Positions 2,816 to 64,000 of a stretch of DNA of 64,000 nucleotides are shown here, piece after piece. The stretch comes from Chytriomyces cf. hyalinus JEL632 (taxonomy: Eukaryota > Chytridiomycota > Chytridiomycetes > Chytridiales > Chytriomycetaceae): assembly GCA_025435555.1 (NCBI GenBank), contig JAIWWG010000016.1:434001-498000 (forward strand), written 5' to 3'. Numbering within the stretch: the first letter of the stretch is position 1; each line of letters opens with the position of its first letter. A model generated the notes under the pieces. It made no database searches. It was not told the DNA's origin and saw nothing but the letters and a program-made list of their open reading frames with translations. The position numbers and the translations under genes are program-made.

Positions 2816-5181
2816 ATGGTTCTGGTTTTCCCTGAGGGCCACTTCCTATGTGTCTGGTTCGCGTTCTGTCTGCTGTCCTCGCTCATGTATTATCTGCGTC
2901 GGGAGAAGCCACTCATCAAGGCTCGGCCCGCAAACTTAACCATCAACCAGACGCTGTCAAATCTGGCGGCAATGTTCTTTATTCACTCGCCGTACTTGGT
3001 CCCGGTACCGTGTTTTGTTCGAGGTAAGACCAACATGCTTGCTTTCTTTTTCAGATACAAGTGCTGACACGCTGACACAAACATTTCTAAACAAGCATGG
3101 GCCATCAACTTTGCAATCGTTATCTGGTCAACCACAACGCTTGTGCGAAACTTTCAGCTATACGTGCAGTACAGATTCAACCAGAACCTGTTGTTCAAAA
3201 ATGATAAACGCCAGGCATCAGGAGCAATAAACACGGCACCGCCAGGAGCTGTCGATGAGTTTGGATACCCAATTCTCACCGCTTCTGTGGACGCGCCAAA
3301 CGCGGAAATCAAAAAGGAAAAGGACAGCAGCGAGATGGGCACCGATTCTGAAGAGTCTCTGCACCGAAAAGGAGTGGGATTGAAGCGCGCTTTTATCAGG
3401 CTCACTGATAAATGGATGATTGACAAGGTTTTGTATAAGCGCATCAATCGAATCATTTTTGGGATGTATGTTCTCACTGGTCTGTACATGATCATGGCTC
3501 AGGTATCTGCTTGTTATTTAGGTGGTGATATTGCTTGAATTCATTGGTTGTCTTCCTTTTCCAGTTTATGTCGCCTTCGATGGCTGTGACTCCCACAATT
3601 AATTTCCTATGCACGTTTGACCTGATTCAGTACGGACTTCTTGCTGGCGGAGTCTTTTTTGTTGAGTGCATAAATTCCACCCAGTCACAGCCAATGCTAA
3701 CGTGTTCCTGGTGTTCTTCAGCTTTTAATATGCGGCGGGATCTTTTCAATGTGGCTGATCCATGACATTACCGACTCCAACTTTATCACCTCCGACTGCT
3801 TAATTACTTACTGCGTGGGTCTTCCCTCTGGTAATCTGTACCCCGCTTTCTTTGTGAACCTGGGAAGGGGGTCTCTAACACCCTTGGAAAACAAAGGAAT
3901 CATATTTTTGGCATTTGTGCAAATACCCGCCTTAACTCAACTCCAGTTTAACCCGAATTGGATGTGAGTGGCTAATGTTTTCTACGATGTGTGGCGCTCA
4001 AGCTCATCGCTAATTCCTTTTTGGCAGCATTGTTATTCCGCTGTTTACGAGTCAAATCACATCGATTGCGTTTCCAGTGATTCTGACGTTCTGGGAGGAT
4101 TACAAATCAATGAGGGTGAAAATCGACATGAATCTGATCTCGTTTAAAGCGGCGCTTGAGGAGCGGCAGCTGTTTGAGGAGATTAAAGAGTACGCGATTC
4201 GAGGTATTTTTATATTGTTTTTATATTATTTTATTTGAATGGCTTGAATAATGCGCGTGTCTTCATTGTTTGCAGACATGTGCGGCGAAAATGTCTTCTT
4301 TCTGGAGGCACTCAAAGTGAGAAAGATGTTGAATACTGAAGGACTTGGTGCTGACAGCAAATCCAAAAAAAAAAAAAAAACATCCAGGAACTCAGAAAAG
4401 AAGCCATTTCTGAACTTACGAAATTCCGATCACGTGCGCCCAGCTTCACTGAGCGAAAGTCGTCAAGTTCGATTGTACAAATGGGCTTTACAACTTCGAA
4501 ACACTCGCGGTTGAGAACTAGCAGTGTCCAGGTTGCTTCGGAGAATAAGCAGAGCCAGGAAGCGCTGAGGTTGGCGGATGTATGTGTGTGCTTATGTTTC
4601 GCTTCCCACTGGGCTGGTATAACTTATTGTTCATATTGCATGCCACAGCTGCCGTCGGTTCCTGAGAGCAGTTCAAGCATTGCTCATCGACCCGAAATTG
4701 ATCTTACTTCTGCACCACCGTATAGCGGCGCAACGAGCGGTGTAGGCCATGACTCCCAAAGCCGCTTAGGCTCTCTTGAGCAAGTTGGCACGAGCCGTTT
4801 CGCGACAGAAACTCGAACGAGAAGGAACCCAAAAGACGCGCATTTCTATGACAATGAACCTGTTCCTCCTTCATTGATTTATAAATACAAACAGTTCGAT
4901 AAACTGTATTGTACGGCTGGCGGGCAAATGGAGGTGAACCTTTCTGCTGAGGTGCGGAGAAATTTGAGCAGTGTGCGGGATGCGGAGGATTGGCGAATCG
5001 GATCGTTTGATCGAGCGAGACTTGAGATTTTGAACGTGTTGGTTCGTGCATTGTTGTTTGTTGCTGTTGTTTAAGCCGTGCTTGCAAAACTAACGCGCCG
5101 CGTTCATTTCAGTTTACAAATGTATATTGTCGGTGGGCGCATCAGAGGCTGGAAAAGGACAAAGAGATCAAAGTGGTGTGA
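2816..5181 (+). CDS. 7TM-RGS protein, tandem copy 2
   Basis: Exons: 2816-3023, 3096-3502, 3565-3660, 3722-3830, 3897-3963, 4028-4203, 4276-4316, 4388-5041, 5113-5181. A stretch at 4580-4648 (69 nt, GTATGT to CACAG) is in frame but reads like a retained intron; with it removed the protein is 585 residues, otherwise 608. Layout is as in copy 1: seven hydrophobic segments, then an RGS box that begins ISFKAALEERQLFEEIKEYA, passes through MCGENVFFLEALK, is interrupted by a polar insert of about 130-155 residues, and closes with FTNVYCRWAHQRLEKDK. Exons of 109, 67, 176 and 41 nt match copy 1 exactly in length and phase. Two donors are weak (GTTGAG at 3661 and GTTCGT at 5042) but are dictated by alignment with the paralogs. 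The ATG at 2816 lies 37 nt after the stop of copy 1, so any promoter must be tiny or inside the upstream gene. Confidence 0.84.
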
Positions 5182-5259
5182 CCGTAACCGTCCGATGAAT
5201 AAAAGAAAACAAATCACAAGTCGATTTTTCTGACACGAAAGATTTGCGAACTCCAAAAA

Positions 5260-8200
5260 ATGGCCAATTTTGGATCAACGCAGGCCCACTTCCTGCTCGT
5301 GTGGTCTATCTTCTGGCTTCTCTCGGTGTCGCTGTTCTTGCTGCGGCGGAGGACGCGTTTGGTTGACGCTCGGAATGTTCCGCTGTCAGTTGTCCAATCG
5401 CTGGCGAATCTGGCGGCTGCGATCAGCATCTGTTTAGACGCACAGCCTGAAGGGATGCCGTGCTTTATTCAAAGTGGGTAGGCGGTCTTTTAAACACGAC
5501 GGGAGACCTTCTGCAGCTGATCCTTTTGCTTATTGCAGTGTGGCTGATGAACCTGTCGATCGCAACATGGATTGGCTGCCAAGTCGCGCGAAACTTGTTT
5601 CTGTATATCCACTACCGCAGCAACCAGAGCCTAATGAGATTCCCGGGTAATTTTGGGGAAAAGAGAGACATGGGCGAGGCAGGGATCTTGTTGACGGACG
5701 AGTTTGGGTTCCCTTTGGATCAGGGCGCTGCTGACAATATACCAAAGATGCGCAGTCCAGAATCAACGAAATATCAGTCTCAGAACGAAAGCGACATTGC
5801 CTCATGTGGCTCTTGGCTTACGCGTTTGGTGGATTTGTATGTTAAAGATAAAAGCGTGTTTCGGCGCATTTACTGGAGCATAGCATGTGTCTATGTGGCT
5901 GTTGTAGCGTATTTGTGCGTGGCGCAGGTAATACGAAGTCGCGTTTTTGGTTTTTTCAGCCTTCTTTTCTGAAGGAATGCCCACAGGCGCTGACCTTGAG
6001 ATTCACTGTCTCGCCCATGGCCGTGAGCCCGTGCGGACTCCATCCATTCGAATACGCCTCATCGATTGCAGCATTTGTAATAGTGAGCCACGCGTGTTCC
6101 CTGAATGAGTGATGTGGGGTTGCTGAATACAAGCCCTTGCAGGTGTACGTCATGGGTGGGCTGGCATCCACCTTCATATTTAACGACGCGCACAGCAACG
6201 ACTTTGTCTTGAGCGATTTCAAACTGACCTACTTTGTGACGTTGGTTCTTGGTGAGTGTTTTTTTTATTTGGAGCTTGCCGTTATATTTCGCGTTTTTAA
6301 ACACGCGTCGATTACAAACAGCGATACTGCACACGCTCTTTCAGGTTGTGCCATATCTGAAAACGCGTTTTCCAGATTCGAACTGGATGTGAGTTTCAAC
6401 GATCGATGGCCCGTTTTTGAAGCTGACTTGTGATTCTTTTGCCCCAAGATTGATTCTGATTCTCGTTTGGAGCCATGTTGTTTCTGTCGTTTTGCCGGTC
6501 TGGATGTCCTTTGCCGAGGAGAGAAGAACGAACCGACTGATGCTGGAACTGACGCTGTCTTCGCTGCATCAAGTTTATGATGAGCCCGTCATGTACCAAG
6601 ATTTGAAGAAATTTGCAATCCAAGGTTTTTTTCCACTTGGTGTCCTTTCTGCCTCACTTCAAAACTAAAACGCGGCCCTCAGACATGTCGGGAGAAAATT
6701 TCTTCTTTTTGGAGTCTTTGGACGCTCTGAAATATCAGTCCCGAGTCCATCTGTTACGCACACAGGAAGCAGAGGTCAAAAGGAGCCAGCCTAGGTCCAG
6801 CATATTCCACTCAATCCACAAAATATCCATCTCCAGAAGCAACAGCGTGAGTATCACCTCGCACGAACGAAACAGCAGCTCCGGCGTAGAATCAAACGCC
6901 GCTCCAATCAATTTCCCTTCACTTCGCGTCTCGACCATGTTGAAACCGCAGCAATACCAAATCCCAAATTCGTCCTCCTTTTCCATCAACAACTTGCTCA
7001 ACTCTTTTTCGTCAGCGCCGTCTCCCACTGGCACATCAAAGCCCGAACAAGATCAAAAAAGCGTAAAGCGTCGATTACTCCAACACGATGCGCTTCAAAT
7101 TGACTCTGAAGCTTCGAGTTCTTTTTCAATTGACTCTGCGCCGCGAAACAGCGGGCTTTCCAACGTGGGCGGGGGCAGGCAGCAGAAAAAGAGTCTTCTT
7201 CGAAACGTTTTGCGAGATTCTGTTGGAAGTCGGATCAGTAGTTGCGACAGTCAAGAGAGCATGGCCGCAATTAAAGGAGAAACTATTTCAGCTTTCGTGA
7301 TTCCAACTCACCATCGTCGCAAATCTCCTGCTTTGGCAACGGCATCCTTCTGTGGCGTGGAAGCAAAGGATAGCTCACGGAGCTTGCAGTTGGAAAGCAC
7401 AAGCGCGGGCAGCGTTGTTGGCAGCGAAAAGAGCGAAAAAGTTGTCTTCACCTGCTCGCCAACCAGCTTTGCTGACGCGGCGTTCAAACCATCGCATCTG
7501 GTTTCCGTCAACCAAGTCTTGCAGAACAACGTCAGCAGCAGTACCAACAGCAACCCTCAAAACCTGTCTGCGAGTTTGTTTGAAATCCCCGTTTCCAGCA
7601 GAAAGGCGGACGAAGTCGACAGCCAACTGAACCTCAACTCAACCAGCAAAGACGTTAAAAGCCGACTCAGTCTAAAGAGCATCACCAACGACAGCAGCTT
7701 CAACATTGCCGCAAACCAGCGAAAGAGTCAAGCGAGTCTTGGCATTGAACTCAAACGCAGTAGTCAGGCGTCCATTTCACAGAGTTCCATCCGGGGACAA
7801 CCCAGCCTCGTGAATCGAAAAAGCGCCTTCAGCCTGGCCCCGGATCCTAAACAAAGCCAAGCGTCGCTGGACCACAACAGCCAGTCCTCCCTTGGGAAGC
7901 GAAAAAGCTTAGCTGCTGCGGAAATTGGGAGGAACAGCCGCTCCAAAGGCAGGAGACTGTTGCCGGAGGAGGAAGCAGCACTGGATTTAAAACCGGTTCC
8001 GAAAAGTCTCATTTCCAATTATAATCACGTGTTTGAACTGTACTGCAGCGAATCGGCCATGTTTTCAGTCAACTTGAGCGCGGGGACGAGGGGCCATCTC
8101 AAGGAAGTGTTCAAGACACAAAGCTGGATAGTCGGTGATTTTTCAAAAGCGCGCGAGGAAGTGTTTTCAAATATTGTAAGTGCATGCATGCATATACATG

Positions 8201-59737: not shown

Positions 59738-59790
59738 GAAGTGGTTAAGGGTAGGGTAGGATTAGAAATAAGCCCTAGGCTTAGGTTAGG
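59738..59790 (+). repeat. Telomere-like TTAGG(G) motifs upstream of a truncated retroelement
   Basis: The stretch contains GGTTAAGGGTAGGGTAGG, then after a short spacer CTTAGGTTAGGATTAGG. These are degenerate TTAGGG-type units. The same TTAGGATTAGG string recurs at 60847-60857 at the start of the next element. Confidence 0.6.
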
Positions 59791-60845
59791 ATTAGGCACA
59801 TACCGCCAAGGCCTCGAACGAGACCACAGACCCGAATCCACATCACTCATCAAGCACACCCTCGCACACAACCCACACTTCCGATCACTTCCCCGCCTCG
59901 CACTCATTGTCAACCCGCTCACCGTCAACAATCGTCAACCCATGCTCATCACTCCTCGTGGATCCACCCACAAGATCCCCGAAGACACCATTGACGAATG
60001 GCACCACCAAGACATGCTCGCGCTTCAACAGAAATCCCAAGCCCGGACATCGAAAATTCTCCCAGTCCCTGCGACCCGCAAGCAGCGCCACGCGCTTGTC
60101 ATGGCCGGCCCCGCAATTTCCAGACCAGTCTCCCGCACCATCCTCCTCTGGCTCCTTGGCCGTATATGCAACCACCAAGAGTGCCGCACGTGCGGCGTCG
60201 AACTGTCCCGCCAGCATGGCATTGAGTGCTCCGGCATTGAACCCGCCCTGCAAGCCGCCTTCGACAACGATCTCGGACCGCCACCAGAACTCCTCGCGCA
60301 TGGAGCCACTATCATCGACGAAGCCATTAGCAAGCTGGAGTTCAAATCCGGGACCAATACAAGAATCGAAGCCACTTACCAGGCCATCAACACGATCCGA
60401 CTCGCCTGCGGCGGATACAGCGAGATCATCGACGCCAGCACCGCTACGCTCCAGCAAGAGCTCGACGCCATCTTCGCGGACTACGAGGGCCTGCGAAGCA
60501 TCCGAGTTCAGGCCACCGCCATCATGAACGCCCACTACAACCCAGCGAAATTCAAACCAACTTACCGAAGCGGGCCATCAAACGCACAAGCACCCCACCG
60601 CGGGGCGATCCGGAACCGAGGAGGTCGACCGAGAGGCCGTGGACGAGGCGGCTGATGCGGCGGACTTGCGCTGCTGTTGTTGGCAGATCGACATTTTCTG
60701 TCAACTTTTACATTTAACCATTTCGAAATTTTTTTTCGCGACTTAGTCGTTTTTTCTCTGTATCCTTACCAAACACGGCCCAAAAAGGGAACCGATTACC
60801 ATTTTGAAAGCGCGCTTTATCAAGCAATAAAGACACACTGAAAAC
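59791..60845 (+). mobile_element. 5'-truncated non-LTR retrotransposon: ORF2 C-terminus plus 3' UTR
   Basis: An open frame ending in TGA at 60655 encodes about 285 retroelement-like residues. They include ILLWLLGRICNHQECRTCGV followed by ELSRQHGIECSGIE, a Cys/His cluster like the one near the C-terminus of many non-LTR reverse transcriptases. A basic RG-rich tail (GGRPRGRGRGG) follows. A 190-nt 3' UTR with T-rich runs precedes the next TTAGG motif. The frame is open back to an ATG at 59735, but that part reads through the TTAGG-like motifs and is probably not element sequence. The endonuclease and polymerase parts are absent, as in typical 5' truncation. Assignment rests on position and the zinc-knuckle-like motif, not on a search. 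Confidence 0.6.
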
Positions 60846-60874
60846 GTTAGGATTAGGAAAAAAGTCTGTTTGAA

Positions 60875-62758
60875 ATGTCCACGGTCATCAAAAGCAGCAG
60901 CACCAACACCAAGCACCCGTTCGTGATGCTGGAGCTCAACATCGCAAAGCGCCTCAAGGGGACGGCTCGCTGTCCCGTGGCGGGATGCGGGTCGGCCTCT
61001 CTGAAGAGCCTTGGGGTGGGAGGGAATCCGAACCAGTTTGGGTTCTCCACCATCCAAATGCAGTGCACCACGTGCACCAAACGTTGCAGACTCAACGCAG
61101 CGCTGAAGGCAGGAGGGTCGGCCTCTGCGGACCTGTACGCAGAGTGGGAGAAGGCTTTCGGTAAGCTGGTCCCAGTCACTTCCACCACAGGCACAGCAGC
61201 AAAGCGCCGCCGCCAGAACTCCGAAGCAGACACTGCCACTGCAGTCTCTACTTCCACACCCAGTGCTTCCCAGAGTCGTCTGATCCAACAGACCCTCTCA
61301 TTTGCTGCAGCCACCGCTGGCCGCTCTGTGGATCAGCCACCAGCAGGCTCAGCAGGCTCAGCAAGCACAGCAACAACCTCAACAACCAATCTCACCACCC
61401 CAGCTGGTTCCGCAGGCCTTCCACAGAGCGAATTCAGCTTCATGGCACCCGCGCCAGCCATGCAGACCACCGCTGCAGCCTCCGAAATGTCGCCATCAGT
61501 GATTTCGAATGCATTTCCACCCCCTGCTGTGCCTGCCACAGCTGTCAACTGGCAGCAGCGTGCAGAGGCAGCAGAGGCCGCTACAGCTTCCCTTCAGACG
61601 CAGCTGCAGTCCCTGATTGCGCTGCTGGCCCAGCTGGTCACCCAGATGCAGCAGGGCTCAGTTGGTGTGGGTAAGTCATCAGGCACAGCAAATGAGTGTC
61701 AGCCAACTGTGGCGCAGCCATTGAGCACAGCAACAGCCCTCTTGGCTTCCATCAGTGCTTCAACTGCTCCCACGCTCGCAGCACCAACTCCCAATGGAGC
61801 CCAGTCCACCCACGTGCAGCCCCATGTGCGTACCTCTCGAAAAAGCGGTCGTGGAGGTCGCACTGGACCTGGAGGGCGTATTGTCCCAGGTGCTGCCCCT
61901 GCCTCAACAACAACTGTTTCTGTACCCGTTGCTGTTGAAAACACTTCCACACAGGTTGTTGAAGCCGCCTGGTCCACTGTTGCACGTAATGGAACGCGTC
62001 GTGCCCCTCCACCATCTTGCGAATCTCGTCAACGCGCGCCGCAAACTCAGCAGCAGTATGATGAAAAAACACACCGCATGCGTCAAAAGAAGGCATTACA
62101 GATGGCGAAAGCTGTCCCTGAACCGAAAAAGTTTGCAGTGATCCGTGTTGAACTCCACAGCAGTCGTCAGTTGCGCGGATGTTCCTTCCGGGACCGGAAA
62201 CATTTGATCGATGCGTTTGTGGGACAGATGGGGGTTCGCCACAATGTGGCTCTTACCTCATCTATTGGTAACTCCATCATTGAGCTGTATTGTCCGACTG
62301 ATGTTGTTCTGGAAGTGGTGCGAGTTCTTAGGGAGCGTGGCCAACAAGTCCTCCTTGCAGCCTTCAACCCACTCATATCCGACATTGACGGAAATCGCCT
62401 TGACTCCACCCAGACAGAAAAAGCTGCCAAGCGCCTCGCGTTTTTGTGCAAAGCCGCACGTACTGTCAATCTCCGTGCTGCCATCCTTGCCGGTGCCTCT
62501 CAGCAACTCAAGGAAGCCACGCAGAAAGTGTTTGAAACCATCCGAGGCTCCCCATCCGACTCCCTTCTTGCACCCCCACGCCCCCACCGTAGCGCGTTTG
62601 CGAAATTTGCTGCCCCAGACACACTGTCGCTAACTGATTTTGTGACTCTCGACCCAGTTCCGGAATCTACTGAGTTTGTCGATAGTCAAGACGATGTTGC
62701 CATGTCTGTGTCCAATCTGGATCTTGGTCCCGCGGCTGACGCCGCCGACCAAGAATGA
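60875..62758 (+). CDS. Retrotransposon ORF1 protein
   Basis: 627 residues. The N-terminus has a Cys pattern (GTARCPVAGCGSASLKSLG and QMQCTTCTKRCRLNAALK) that could bind zinc. A Ser/Thr/Ala/Gln-rich middle follows, with an AEAAEAATASLQTQLQSLIA coiled-coil segment and an RTSRKSGRGGRTGPGGRIVP basic patch. The C-terminal part (FAVIRVELHSSRQLRGCSFR, VVLEVVRVLRERGQQVLLAA) resembles the RNA-binding C-terminal part of ORF1 proteins. It probably coats element RNA. The TGA overlaps the ORF2 start. Confidence 0.8.
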   Translation: MSTVIKSSSTNTKHPFVMLELNIAKRLKGTARCPVAGCGSASLKSLGVGGNPNQFGFSTIQMQCTTCTKRCRLNAALKAGGSASADLYAEWEKAFGKLVPVTSTTGTAAKRRRQNSEADTATAVSTSTPSASQSRLIQQTLSFAAATAGRSVDQPPAGSAGSASTATTSTTNLTTPAGSAGLPQSEFSFMAPAPAMQTTAAASEMSPSVISNAFPPPAVPATAVNWQQRAEAAEAATASLQTQLQSLIALLAQLVTQMQQGSVGVGKSSGTANECQPTVAQPLSTATALLASISASTAPTLAAPTPNGAQSTHVQPHVRTSRKSGRGGRTGPGGRIVPGAAPASTTTVSVPVAVENTSTQVVEAAWSTVARNGTRRAPPPSCESRQRAPQTQQQYDEKTHRMRQKKALQMAKAVPEPKKFAVIRVELHSSRQLRGCSFRDRKHLIDAFVGQMGVRHNVALTSSIGNSIIELYCPTDVVLEVVRVLRERGQQVLLAAFNPLISDIDGNRLDSTQTEKAAKRLAFLCKAARTVNLRAAILAGASQQLKEATQKVFETIRGSPSDSLLAPPRPHRSAFAKFAAPDTLSLTDFVTLDPVPESTEFVDSQDDVAMSVSNLDLGPAADAADQE

Positions 62759-64000
62759 TCAAAATCGCATTTTCGAATCTCAACGGGCTGTCTGGCAAAG
62801 CCGAAGAAGTCCTGAGATTCAAGTCTGCGCAATCTGTTGACCTTTCTTTAATGGTGGAAACGTGGCTCTCCCCAACATCCTCCATTCCTTTTCGACCACA
62901 CCTATTTAATATCACAAGTACAAACACGGAGGCAATTGCGGGAGGTCGGCGCAATTTTGGCGGCATTTTGGCGTTCTCAACTGCAACTCTCTCCCCCCAA
63001 TTCCGAGTTATCTATGAAGATCCCTTGGGGTTCTATTGCGCAATGCGCATCTCTGATCTTATCCTCATCACTGCCTACATCCCCCCCTCTGCTGACAATC
63101 GGGTAATCGGGGACATGCTTCAAAAAGCGGAAACGTTATCTGAAGGCTTTACGTTGCGTTGTCTTTTGGTTGGCGATCTGAACGCACGGATGACGGATGC
63201 TGGTGATTCACTCACAAACACACGTGGAACGTATATGCAGCAGGAACTGTTCAACTCTGGACTTGCGCTTCAAATCCCGGAGTCTGGGAAATGGACGTCG
63301 TGGGCTGGTGGTGGTCGAGGGATTCCGGATGTTGTACTCTCGAGCTTCCCAGTCTCTAACCTCACAGTTCATGAAGGCGAGTCACTTGGAGGTTCGGACC
63401 ATCGGCCGCTGACATTTTCTGTGCCACTGGATGTCGAAACCAAGCCCAAGTCTTTTGCGCGCTGGAATGTTCGTCGCCTCACAACTGCCAAATACCATCA
63501 GCGTTTTGCTGAGGAGCTGGAGTCCACGCAGCAGGAGATCATGGATCAACTGGAATTGCTGCGAACACGCTTGGAAAGCCCTGCTGTGGGATACGTTGCG
63601 GGTGTATCACAGTGCGATGCACACACCGTGGCACCTGCAGTAGGCGCCAACCCTCCGGGAAGTACTTCCCATGCTTCTCTTGATCCTGTTACCCACACTG
63701 CAGATTGCCCCAGAGCCACCACTCACATGTCTGACAGTCCTTCTCAGTCCGCTGGTCCATCCCACTCCCATCCACGTTCTGTCGATGCTCCCAACCCATC
63801 TACGCAGCAGGACATGTGCTTATGCCTGGAATTGCTGCGAACGAGCTTTGAAAGCCCTGCTGTGGGGTACATCGCGGGTGCATCACAGTGCGATGCACAC
63901 ACCGCGGTACCTGCAGTAGGCGCTCCCCTCCCGGGAAGTACTTCTCGCTCCTCGCTCTTGAACAATACTCACACACCAAACCGTGCTAGAACTCAAGAGT
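62755..64000 (+). CDS. Retrotransposon ORF2, endonuclease part (truncated by window end)
   Basis: The ATG at 62755 overlaps the ORF1 stop (ATGA). The frame is open for all 415 remaining codons. Residues 1-230 are an endonuclease/exonuclease/phosphatase-fold domain: IAFSNLNGLSGKAEEVLRF, LMVETWLS, ITAYIPPSADNR, LLVGDLNARMTD and the C-terminal GGSDHRPLTFS with the catalytic Asp-His. This domain nicks target DNA for target-primed reverse transcription. The following linker carries a duplicated segment. The reverse transcriptase should lie beyond 64000. Confidence 0.88.
   Translation, partial: MIKIAFSNLNGLSGKAEEVLRFKSAQSVDLSLMVETWLSPTSSIPFRPHLFNITSTNTEAIAGGRRNFGGILAFSTATLSPQFRVIYEDPLGFYCAMRISDLILITAYIPPSADNRVIGDMLQKAETLSEGFTLRCLLVGDLNARMTDAGDSLTNTRGTYMQQELFNSGLALQIPESGKWTSWAGGGRGIPDVVLSSFPVSNLTVHEGESLGGSDHRPLTFSVPLDVETKPKSFARWNVRRLTTAKYHQRFAEELESTQQEIMDQLELLRTRLESPAVGYVAGVSQCDAHTVAPAVGANPPGSTSHASLDPVTHTADCPRATTHMSDSPSQSAGPSHSHPRSVDAPNPSTQQDMCLCLELLRTSFESPAVGYIAGASQCDAHTAVPAVGAPLPGSTSRSSLLNNTHTPNRARTQE
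63550..63668 (+). repeat. In-frame direct repeat within ORF2, copy 1
   Basis: 119 nt encoding LELLRTRLESPAVGYVAGVS and onward; a near-identical copy lies 276 nt downstream in the same frame, with no gaps between the two. Confidence 0.85.
63826..63944 (+). repeat. In-frame direct repeat within ORF2, copy 2
   Basis: 119 nt encoding LELLRTSFESPAVGYIAGAS and onward; pairs with 63550-63668. Confidence 0.85.

What the first reader, a model, noticed from the sequence alone, without database searches (positions are those of the whole stretch)
59738..60870. Head-to-tail non-LTR elements separated by TTAGG-type telomere-like motifs
A 5'-truncated retroelement end starts directly after CTTAGGTTAGGATTAGG. 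The next, apparently full-length element starts after GTTAGGATTAGG, with under 20 nt of 5' UTR. GGTTAAGGGTAGGG also occurs in the first block. Same orientation, recurring TTAGG strings at both 5' junctions, and truncation at the junction are what telomere-repeat-specific elements (SART/TRAS in silkworm, MoTeR in Magnaporthe) produce. This could be a chytrid telomere-associated retrotransposon, with the window end near a chromosome end.
Basis: partly seen in the sequence, partly recalled or inferred. Interest (0 to 1): 0.8.

Follow-up and report, generated by a model that had tools for sequence, protein, structure and literature searches.

The report
Retrotransposons nesting in telomere-like target sites
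A group of jumping genes lands on a 12-letter, telomere-like DNA site and copies that site on both sides as it lands, so that others can land beside it again and again, building same-way chains, many of them at what look like chromosome ends.

Summary
In detail: a 5'-truncated LINE (59797-60845) is followed by a full-length one (from 60858), same orientation, with GTTAGGATTAGG directly before each. They belong to two related families (A truncated, B full length; ORF2 28% identical), each encoding an apurinic-type endonuclease and a reverse transcriptase. In the assembly, 100 three-prime ends of A, B and kin were read: the next 12 nt match GTTAGGGTTAGG at 10.5 of 12 positions on average (control 3.2). 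Spacers between elements are 11-13 nt at 42 of 44 junctions, not variable telomere tracts as in MoTeR. The spacer is a 12-bp target-site duplication: of six solitary copies tested, four have the identical 12-mer on both sides, one a copy with one mismatch, one none. Spacer variants follow the array, not the family (16 of 61 neighbours share a variant; permuted mean 2.1). In the window the two 12-mers are identical, rare A included. Best reading: R1-like LINEs that target GTTAGGGTTAGG-like sites and reinsert into their own duplicated target. The telomere idea is partly right: many arrays look terminal with 3' ends outward, but copies also lie inside contigs. MoTeR membership is excluded; R1/SART membership could not be tested by phylogeny. 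Host unidentified.

The parts
59741..59796 (+). Degenerate TTAGGG-like tract before the first element
   Evidence: Read directly; the call 'degenerate telomere' is by eye
59785..59796 (+). Left copy of the 12-bp target-site duplication, GTTAGGATTAGG
   Evidence: Identical to 60846-60857
59797..60845 (+). 5'-truncated family A element (positions 4404-5452 of the 5452-bp unit)
   Evidence: 100% identity to the C66 copy
59797..60655 (+). 3' part of family A ORF2, including a C-terminal CX2CX8HX4C motif
   Evidence: Frame and stop from the complete copy; motif read by eye
60656..60845 (+). Family A 3' UTR, ending ACTGAAAAC, no poly(A) tail
   Evidence: 24 places in the assembly; shared last bases
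60846..60857 (+). Right copy of the 12-bp duplication, GTTAGGATTAGG; also the left border of element B
60858..64000 (+). Full-length family B element (continues to C68:500759)
60875..62758 (+). Family B ORF1, 627 aa, N-terminal cysteine motif shared with A and C ORF1
62755..64000 (+). Family B ORF2 (first 415 codons of 1273; overlaps ORF1 by ATGA): endonuclease domain in the window, reverse transcriptase beyond it
   Evidence: PF14529 at residues 104-219 and PF00078 at 651-895 of the complete copy

Best explanation
Related non-LTR retrotransposons (autonomous A and B, an ORF1-only family C, and further families D and F known mainly from their 3' ends) insert at 12-bp sites resembling two telomeric hexamers, GTTAGGGTTAGG. 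Shown: an insertion leaves the 12-mer on both sides of the new copy, full length or 5'-truncated. Inferred: the endonuclease nicks the C-rich strand just 5' of GTTAGG; the element RNA, which leaves no poly(A) in the DNA and may read through into the next 12-mer, pairs with the exposed CCTAAC end and is reverse transcribed; the G-rich strand is cut 12 bp downstream. Since every insertion makes another copy of its own target, elements of any of these families can insert there again, so chains grow with 12-bp spacers that carry the variant of the founding site. Founding sites are telomeric or telomere-like repeats at chromosome ends and, less often, chance matches inside chromosomes.
For: Of six solitary copies tested, the 12-mer after the 3' end also stands before the 5' end on C2, C221, C210 and C12 exactly and on C180 with one mismatch; left flanks were read on all five. 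C198: the same rare 12-mer at the left border and after two elements. Window: both sides identical. Fixed spacer: 42 of 44. Target conservation over 100 of 100 ends from two lists that do not presuppose TTAGG: 10.5 of 12 against 3.2 in the control stretch. Array-specific variants: 16 of 61 neighbour pairs; 0 of 20,000 permutations reach it. Eight distinct truncation points in arrays or the window, each directly after an intact 12-mer. Open ORFs and domains. The same logic is published for R1 with 14-bp spacers (PMC2718515, passages).
Against: C13 gave no second 12-mer. C172 shows no matching left flank by eye. About ten other dispersed copies were not tested for a left copy. Some ends fit the target poorly: C1 (ATTATAATCAAG), C32, C4:84701, C134, and 11 F ends with G(T/C)AACTTTTAGG. 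In three of the 16 neighbour pairs (C140, C142) the variant base could belong to the following A-run, and segmental duplication explains part of the rest. Why insertions go to the 12-mer beside an element rather than anywhere in a long telomere tract is not explained.
Confidence: 0.85

Rival explanations
1. Insertion at random positions in true telomere repeats, as published for MoTeR and SART; the TTAGG strings are leftover telomere tract.
For: C111 and C60 have longer repeat tracts before the first element; C94 ends in (TTAGGG)8; arrays with exact GTTAGGGTTAGG spacers look terminal.
Against: Spacers are 11-13 nt at 42 of 44 junctions; solitary copies inside contigs carry duplicated 12-mers that are only partly telomeric.
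Confidence: 0.08
2. Arrays arise by template jumping, or the 12-mer is the encoded 3' end of the element RNA.
For: Fixed spacer length; AATAAA or ATTAAA lies about 25 nt upstream of the spacer end in each family (by eye).
Against: Solitary copies have different 12-mers after the same 3' end, equal to their own left flanks; variants follow the array, not the family.
Confidence: 0.03
3. Arrays are tandem duplications by unequal crossing-over or break-induced replication.
For: Near-identical A units of 5452-5453 bp on C66 and C78, a B truncation at 3258 shared by C66 and C78, equal spacings of 1206 bp on C10.
Against: Eight distinct truncation points in arrays or the window, and A, B, C and D ends interleave, each with a 12-mer. 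Recombination may well enlarge arrays but does not create such junctions.
Confidence: 0.04

Closest known systems
R1 (28S rDNA-specific LINE of arthropods) and its tandem arrays
   Same: Apurinic-type endonuclease LINE (recalled for R1); tandem arrays with copies separated by the target-site duplication and explained by insertion into it; off-target insertions share a few bp with the target (PMC2718515, passages).
   Different: Target is a telomere-like 12-mer, not 28S rDNA; duplication 12 bp instead of 14; several families share the target and the arrays.
SART1 of the silkworm (and TRAS)
   Same: Telomeric target, sense strand on the TTAGG side (PMC7265360, passages).
   Different: SART1 has a poly(A) tail joined to AGG within TT^AGG; here no poly(A), junction before GTTAGG, fixed 12-bp spacers and insertions at internal sites.
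MoTeR / FoTeR / Cnl1 (CRE-clade telomere elements of fungi)
   Same: Head-to-tail arrays in telomeric sequence, 5'-truncated copies, a non-autonomous partner (MoTeR2).
   Different: Those use a restriction-like endonuclease; MoTeR 5' ends face the chromosome end and its spacers vary from half a repeat to over twenty (PMC7367193, PMC12857005, passages).
HeT-A/TART/TAHRE of Drosophila
   Same: Head-to-tail arrays at chromosome ends, several families mixed, one without reverse transcriptase (recalled).
   Different: They attach by the 3' end to the chromosome end and replace telomerase (recalled); here the orientation is opposite and a telomerase-domain match is present.

Membership tests
SART/TRAS (telomere-specific LINEs, R1 clade) | Apurinic-type endonuclease plus reverse transcriptase in ORF2 | tested here: met
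   PF14529 and PF00078 above cut-off in A and B
SART/TRAS (telomere-specific LINEs, R1 clade) | Insertion into telomeric repeats | tested here: inconclusive
   Many copies at telomere-like 12-mers and before or after TTAGGG runs, others at internal sites sharing only part of it
SART/TRAS (telomere-specific LINEs, R1 clade) | SART orientation: sense strand carries TTAGG | tested here: met
   All spacers read GTTAGG-like on the sense strand; compare PMC7265360 passages
SART/TRAS (telomere-specific LINEs, R1 clade) | SART1 3' poly(A) tail joined to AGG | tested here: not met
   3' ends read ACTGAAAAC then GTTAGG, no poly(A)
SART/TRAS (telomere-specific LINEs, R1 clade) | R1-clade position of the reverse transcriptase | not testable with these tools
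   No reference set of eukaryotic LINE proteins at hand; solved matches name LINE-1 and R2 proteins
R1 | Fixed-length target-site duplication that separates copies in arrays | tested here: met
   12 bp here, 14 bp in R1
R1 | 28S rDNA target | tested here: not met
   Target is GTTAGGGTTAGG-like
MoTeR/FoTeR/CRE clade | Restriction-like endonuclease | tested here: not met
   N-terminal apurinic-type endonuclease instead; no other endonuclease family in the scan
MoTeR/FoTeR/CRE clade | 5' end toward the chromosome end (MoTeR) | tested here: not met
   3' end toward the contig end on C94 with its terminal (TTAGGG)8 and on eight longer contigs
MoTeR/FoTeR/CRE clade | Variable TTAGGG tracts between elements (MoTeR) | tested here: not met
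   11-13 nt at 42 of 44 junctions

The most novel reading that the evidence does not exclude
The genome keeps two opposed classes of telomere-seeking apurinic-type LINEs: the A/B/C/D group, inserted 3'-outward with 12-bp duplications, and the poly(A)-tailed family T, attached 3'-inward to telomere-like tracts. Together they build and rebuild chromosome ends alongside a telomerase. If the host is a fungus, this is a silkworm-like SART/TRAS pairing evolved outside animals and working through R1-style self-nesting.
Probability: 0.35. Interest if true: 0.8.

Novelty: new variant of a known kind. Interest (0 to 1): 0.62.

Why it matters
It shows a LINE group multiplying its own landing site: an insertion at a two-hexamer, telomere-like 12-mer makes a new one, so chains grow in place and keep a readable record (the spacer variant) of the founding site. 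It joins R1-type self-nesting to a telomere-like target, with several families sharing one target and one 3' end. The fungal telomere elements described in the passages read here use another endonuclease and, for MoTeR, the opposite orientation, so this gives a separate case for asking how retroelements and telomerase share chromosome ends.

Tried and rejected
Rejected: template jumping or an RNA-encoded spacer (solitary copies carry different 12-mers equal to their own left flanks); tandem duplication as the origin of the junctions (eight truncation points); MoTeR-type membership (endonuclease, orientation, spacing). The list from CTGAAAACGTTAGG (76 places) presupposes TTAGG; to meet this a second list without it was made (also 76 places). 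27 of its places had not been read and were then read; many have other 12-mers, which sharpened the target and showed family F.

Led nowhere: host identification by 18S rRNA (did not complete with a result); endonuclease structure from the single window sequence (mean pLDDT 35, not used further); endonuclease-only PDB search (B: no meaningful match; A: weak matches to exodeoxyribonucleases, E 0.001-0.006); a tRNA-like look of the C2 left flank, not confirmed by ARAGORN on the 101 bases held. The zero microhomology is trivial, since the alignment start absorbs matching bases; it shows only that the 12-mer is intact at ten truncation junctions.

Not found in print: searches (held open-access papers; titles and abstract starts as listed) showed no apurinic-type telomere-targeting LINE of fungi. 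Papers PMC12857005, PMC7265360, PMC7367193, PMC2718515, PMC10088271, PMC11797018 and PMC8381367 were seen as passages; all others only as search listings.

Mended since: the contig-orientation count (now with its criterion and the contrary contigs C1 and C231), the best solved match of A, the reach of the duplication test, the tRNA remark, and the odds of the rivals (lowered so that they fit the unchanged 0.85).

Full report
What is in the window. The window is bases 434001-498000 of contig C68 (508,360 bases) of an unnamed 37.8-Mb assembly in 242 contigs. At 59797-60845 lies a 5'-truncated LINE identical to positions 4404-5452 of a repeated 5452-bp unit, family A. At 60858 a full-length element of a second family, B, begins and runs past the window to C68:500759, followed by another B and then an A that the contig end cuts. 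GTTAGGATTAGG precedes each of the two elements in the window; TTAGGATTAGG occurs nowhere else in the 64 kb and is not expected by chance.

The elements. In A and B the open frames ORF1 and ORF2 overlap by ATGA. B ORF1 begins with an ATG; the ORF1 frames of A and C are open from near the 5' end but have no early ATG (first Met at codon 217 and 148 of the open stretch), so how they start is open. ORF2 holds an N-terminal apurinic-type endonuclease and a reverse transcriptase. The best solved matches are LINE-1 ORF2p for B and, for A, chain 8c8j, named only RNA-directed DNA polymerase, followed by LINE-1 ORF2p. The two ORF2s are 28% identical over 869 columns, and 29% over 282 in the endonuclease part. 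Family C (2332 bp without its spacer, C94) has ORF1 but no reverse transcriptase; the ORF1s of A and C are 21% identical to that of B, with a shared cysteine motif. D and F stand for further 3' ends whose bodies were not read; C and D ends were counted together. These families share the last bases ACTGAAAAC and lack a poly(A) tail. In the stretches held, at least 9 A copies have an open 1215-aa ORF2 and at least 4 B copies an open 1273-aa ORF2; other copies are cut, frameshifted or truncated.

The spacer is fixed. Among the junctions held, 44 have a full-length element after an element's 3' end; 42 have a spacer of 11-13 nt, one of 15 and one of 20. MoTeR arrays carry from half a repeat to over twenty (PMC7367193, passage).

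The spacer is a target-site duplication. For six dispersed copies I asked whether the 12-mer after the 3' end also stands before the 5' end. It does exactly on C2 (GTTAGGGAATAG), C221 (GTTAGGGAGTAA), C210 (GTTAGGAATATG) and C12 (GTTAGGACTCAG), and with one mismatch on C180; C13 gave no second copy. Flanks read directly on the five agree: the two sides part right after the 12-mer (on C2 one base later), and the left side runs into a full-length C (C210), a C from position 1176 (C180) or an A from 3779 (C12); the C2 and C221 bodies match none of A, B, C and were taken as D by their 3' ends. The C172 copy shows no matching left flank by eye. About ten further dispersed copies were not tested. On C198 the rare 12-mer GTTAGGGTTATA, found 4 times in the assembly, stands at the left border and after two elements. 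In the window the truncated A has GTTAGGATTAGG on both sides.

Variants follow the array. Two lists that do not presuppose TTAGG were combined: 24 places of the A 3' UTR and 76 of the B/C/D/F tail; the search tool calls such counts lower bounds. All 100 flanks were read. The following 12 nt match GTTAGGGTTAGG at a mean of 10.5 positions (control stretch further downstream 3.2); 70 of 100 begin GTTAGG, 97 begin GT, 89 contain TTAGG. For the neighbour test 7 junctions of the list were added (107). Of 61 adjacent pairs, 16 share an identical non-consensus spacer; permuting spacers within families gives a mean of 2.1 and a maximum of 8 in 20,000 runs. C10 has GTTAGGGTTATG seven times across A, B and C/D ends, C5 GTTAGAGTTAGG three times, C203 GTTAAGGTTAGC three times. 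Three of the 16 pairs (C140, C142) rest on a base that could belong to the following A-run, and equal spacings on C10 and a shared truncation on C66 and C78 point to some segmental duplication, so the figure overstates the number of independent events. Exceptions: C1 does not resemble the target; C32, C4:84701 and C134 do so partly; 11 F ends share G(T/C)AACTTTTAGG, six of them with much the same following sequence.

Mechanism. A LINE that duplicates its 12-bp target makes a fresh target at every insertion. R1 arrays in Drosophila are explained in this way, with 14-bp spacers, and R1 insertions outside 28S DNA share 4-9 bp with the target (PMC2718515, passages). The nick position, the read-through RNA and the 12-bp stagger are inferences from the junctions. 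Twelve bp is two telomeric hexamers, so in telomere repeats the duplication keeps the register.

Chromosome ends. C94 ends in (TTAGGG)8, its six A-group junctions all 3'-outward; C111 has 21 perfect TTAGGG repeats and an imperfect one before a truncated B that starts 5.8 kb from the contig end; on C209 a B cut at position 5391 of 5917 runs into a telomere-like tract at the contig end, as if a broken end had been healed. On 5 of 5 contigs over 50 kb with an exact GTTAGGGTTAGG spacer the 3' ends point to the nearer contig end, and so they do on C111, C60 and C209. This grouping was made afterwards, and for C48, C238, C5 and C40 it rests on junction coordinates and contig lengths. Against it: B-type ends with other flanks on C1 and C231 point inward near a contig end, and C10, C198 and C203 arrays lie far inside contigs. 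A telomerase RNA-binding domain is matched above cut-off in two pieces on C172.

Family T. Another kind of element, poly(A)-tailed, sits the other way round: its tail is followed by degenerate CCCTAA sequence in 13 of 19 flanks by a shuffle test at 0.05; 6 are not significant and a twentieth place has no 3' end. C94, C193 and C76 carry T directly on TTAGGG repeats, while an older copy at C193:243240 does not. T was matched at 24 places. One open piece is 25% identical to B ORF2 over 247 columns.

Verdict. I file it as a new variant of a known kind: R1-like in mechanism, SART-like in orientation, with clade membership untested.

Noticed in passing
L036 (C193:243000-249066), L034 (C94:22266-22814), L067, L079-L098: Family T: a poly(A)-tailed LINE in the opposite orientation, whose tail is followed by degenerate CCCTAA repeats in 13 of 19 flanks; on C94 a truncated T is capped by (TTAGGG)8.
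   Followed up: partly
window 63523-63668 and 63799-63944: Two copies of a ~146-bp stretch, 84% identical, inside family B ORF2 between the endonuclease and reverse transcriptase domains.
   Followed up: no
L123-L124, L129-L131, L133-L134, L138-L139, L145-L146: Family F: 11 three-prime ends with the same ACTGAAAAC but followed by G(T/C)AACTTTTAGG, at scattered places; a possible change of target or spread inside a larger repeat.
   Followed up: partly
L037 (C209:193530-193648): A B element cut at position 5391 of 5917 runs into a degenerate telomere tract at the contig end, as if a broken chromosome end had been healed.
   Followed up: no
whole assembly: GTTAGG-containing 12-mers are scarce against the same patterns read backwards: 16 against 85 and 31 against 149; a third pattern shows 12 against 15.
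   Followed up: no
L042:340-1929, L034:3571-5637: The ORF1 frames of families A and C are open from near the 5' end without an early ATG, unlike B.
   Followed up: no
5' ends of full-length elements: Full-length elements begin with 5-11 A's of varying number at 44 junctions; slippage, untemplated addition or sequencing error.
   Followed up: no
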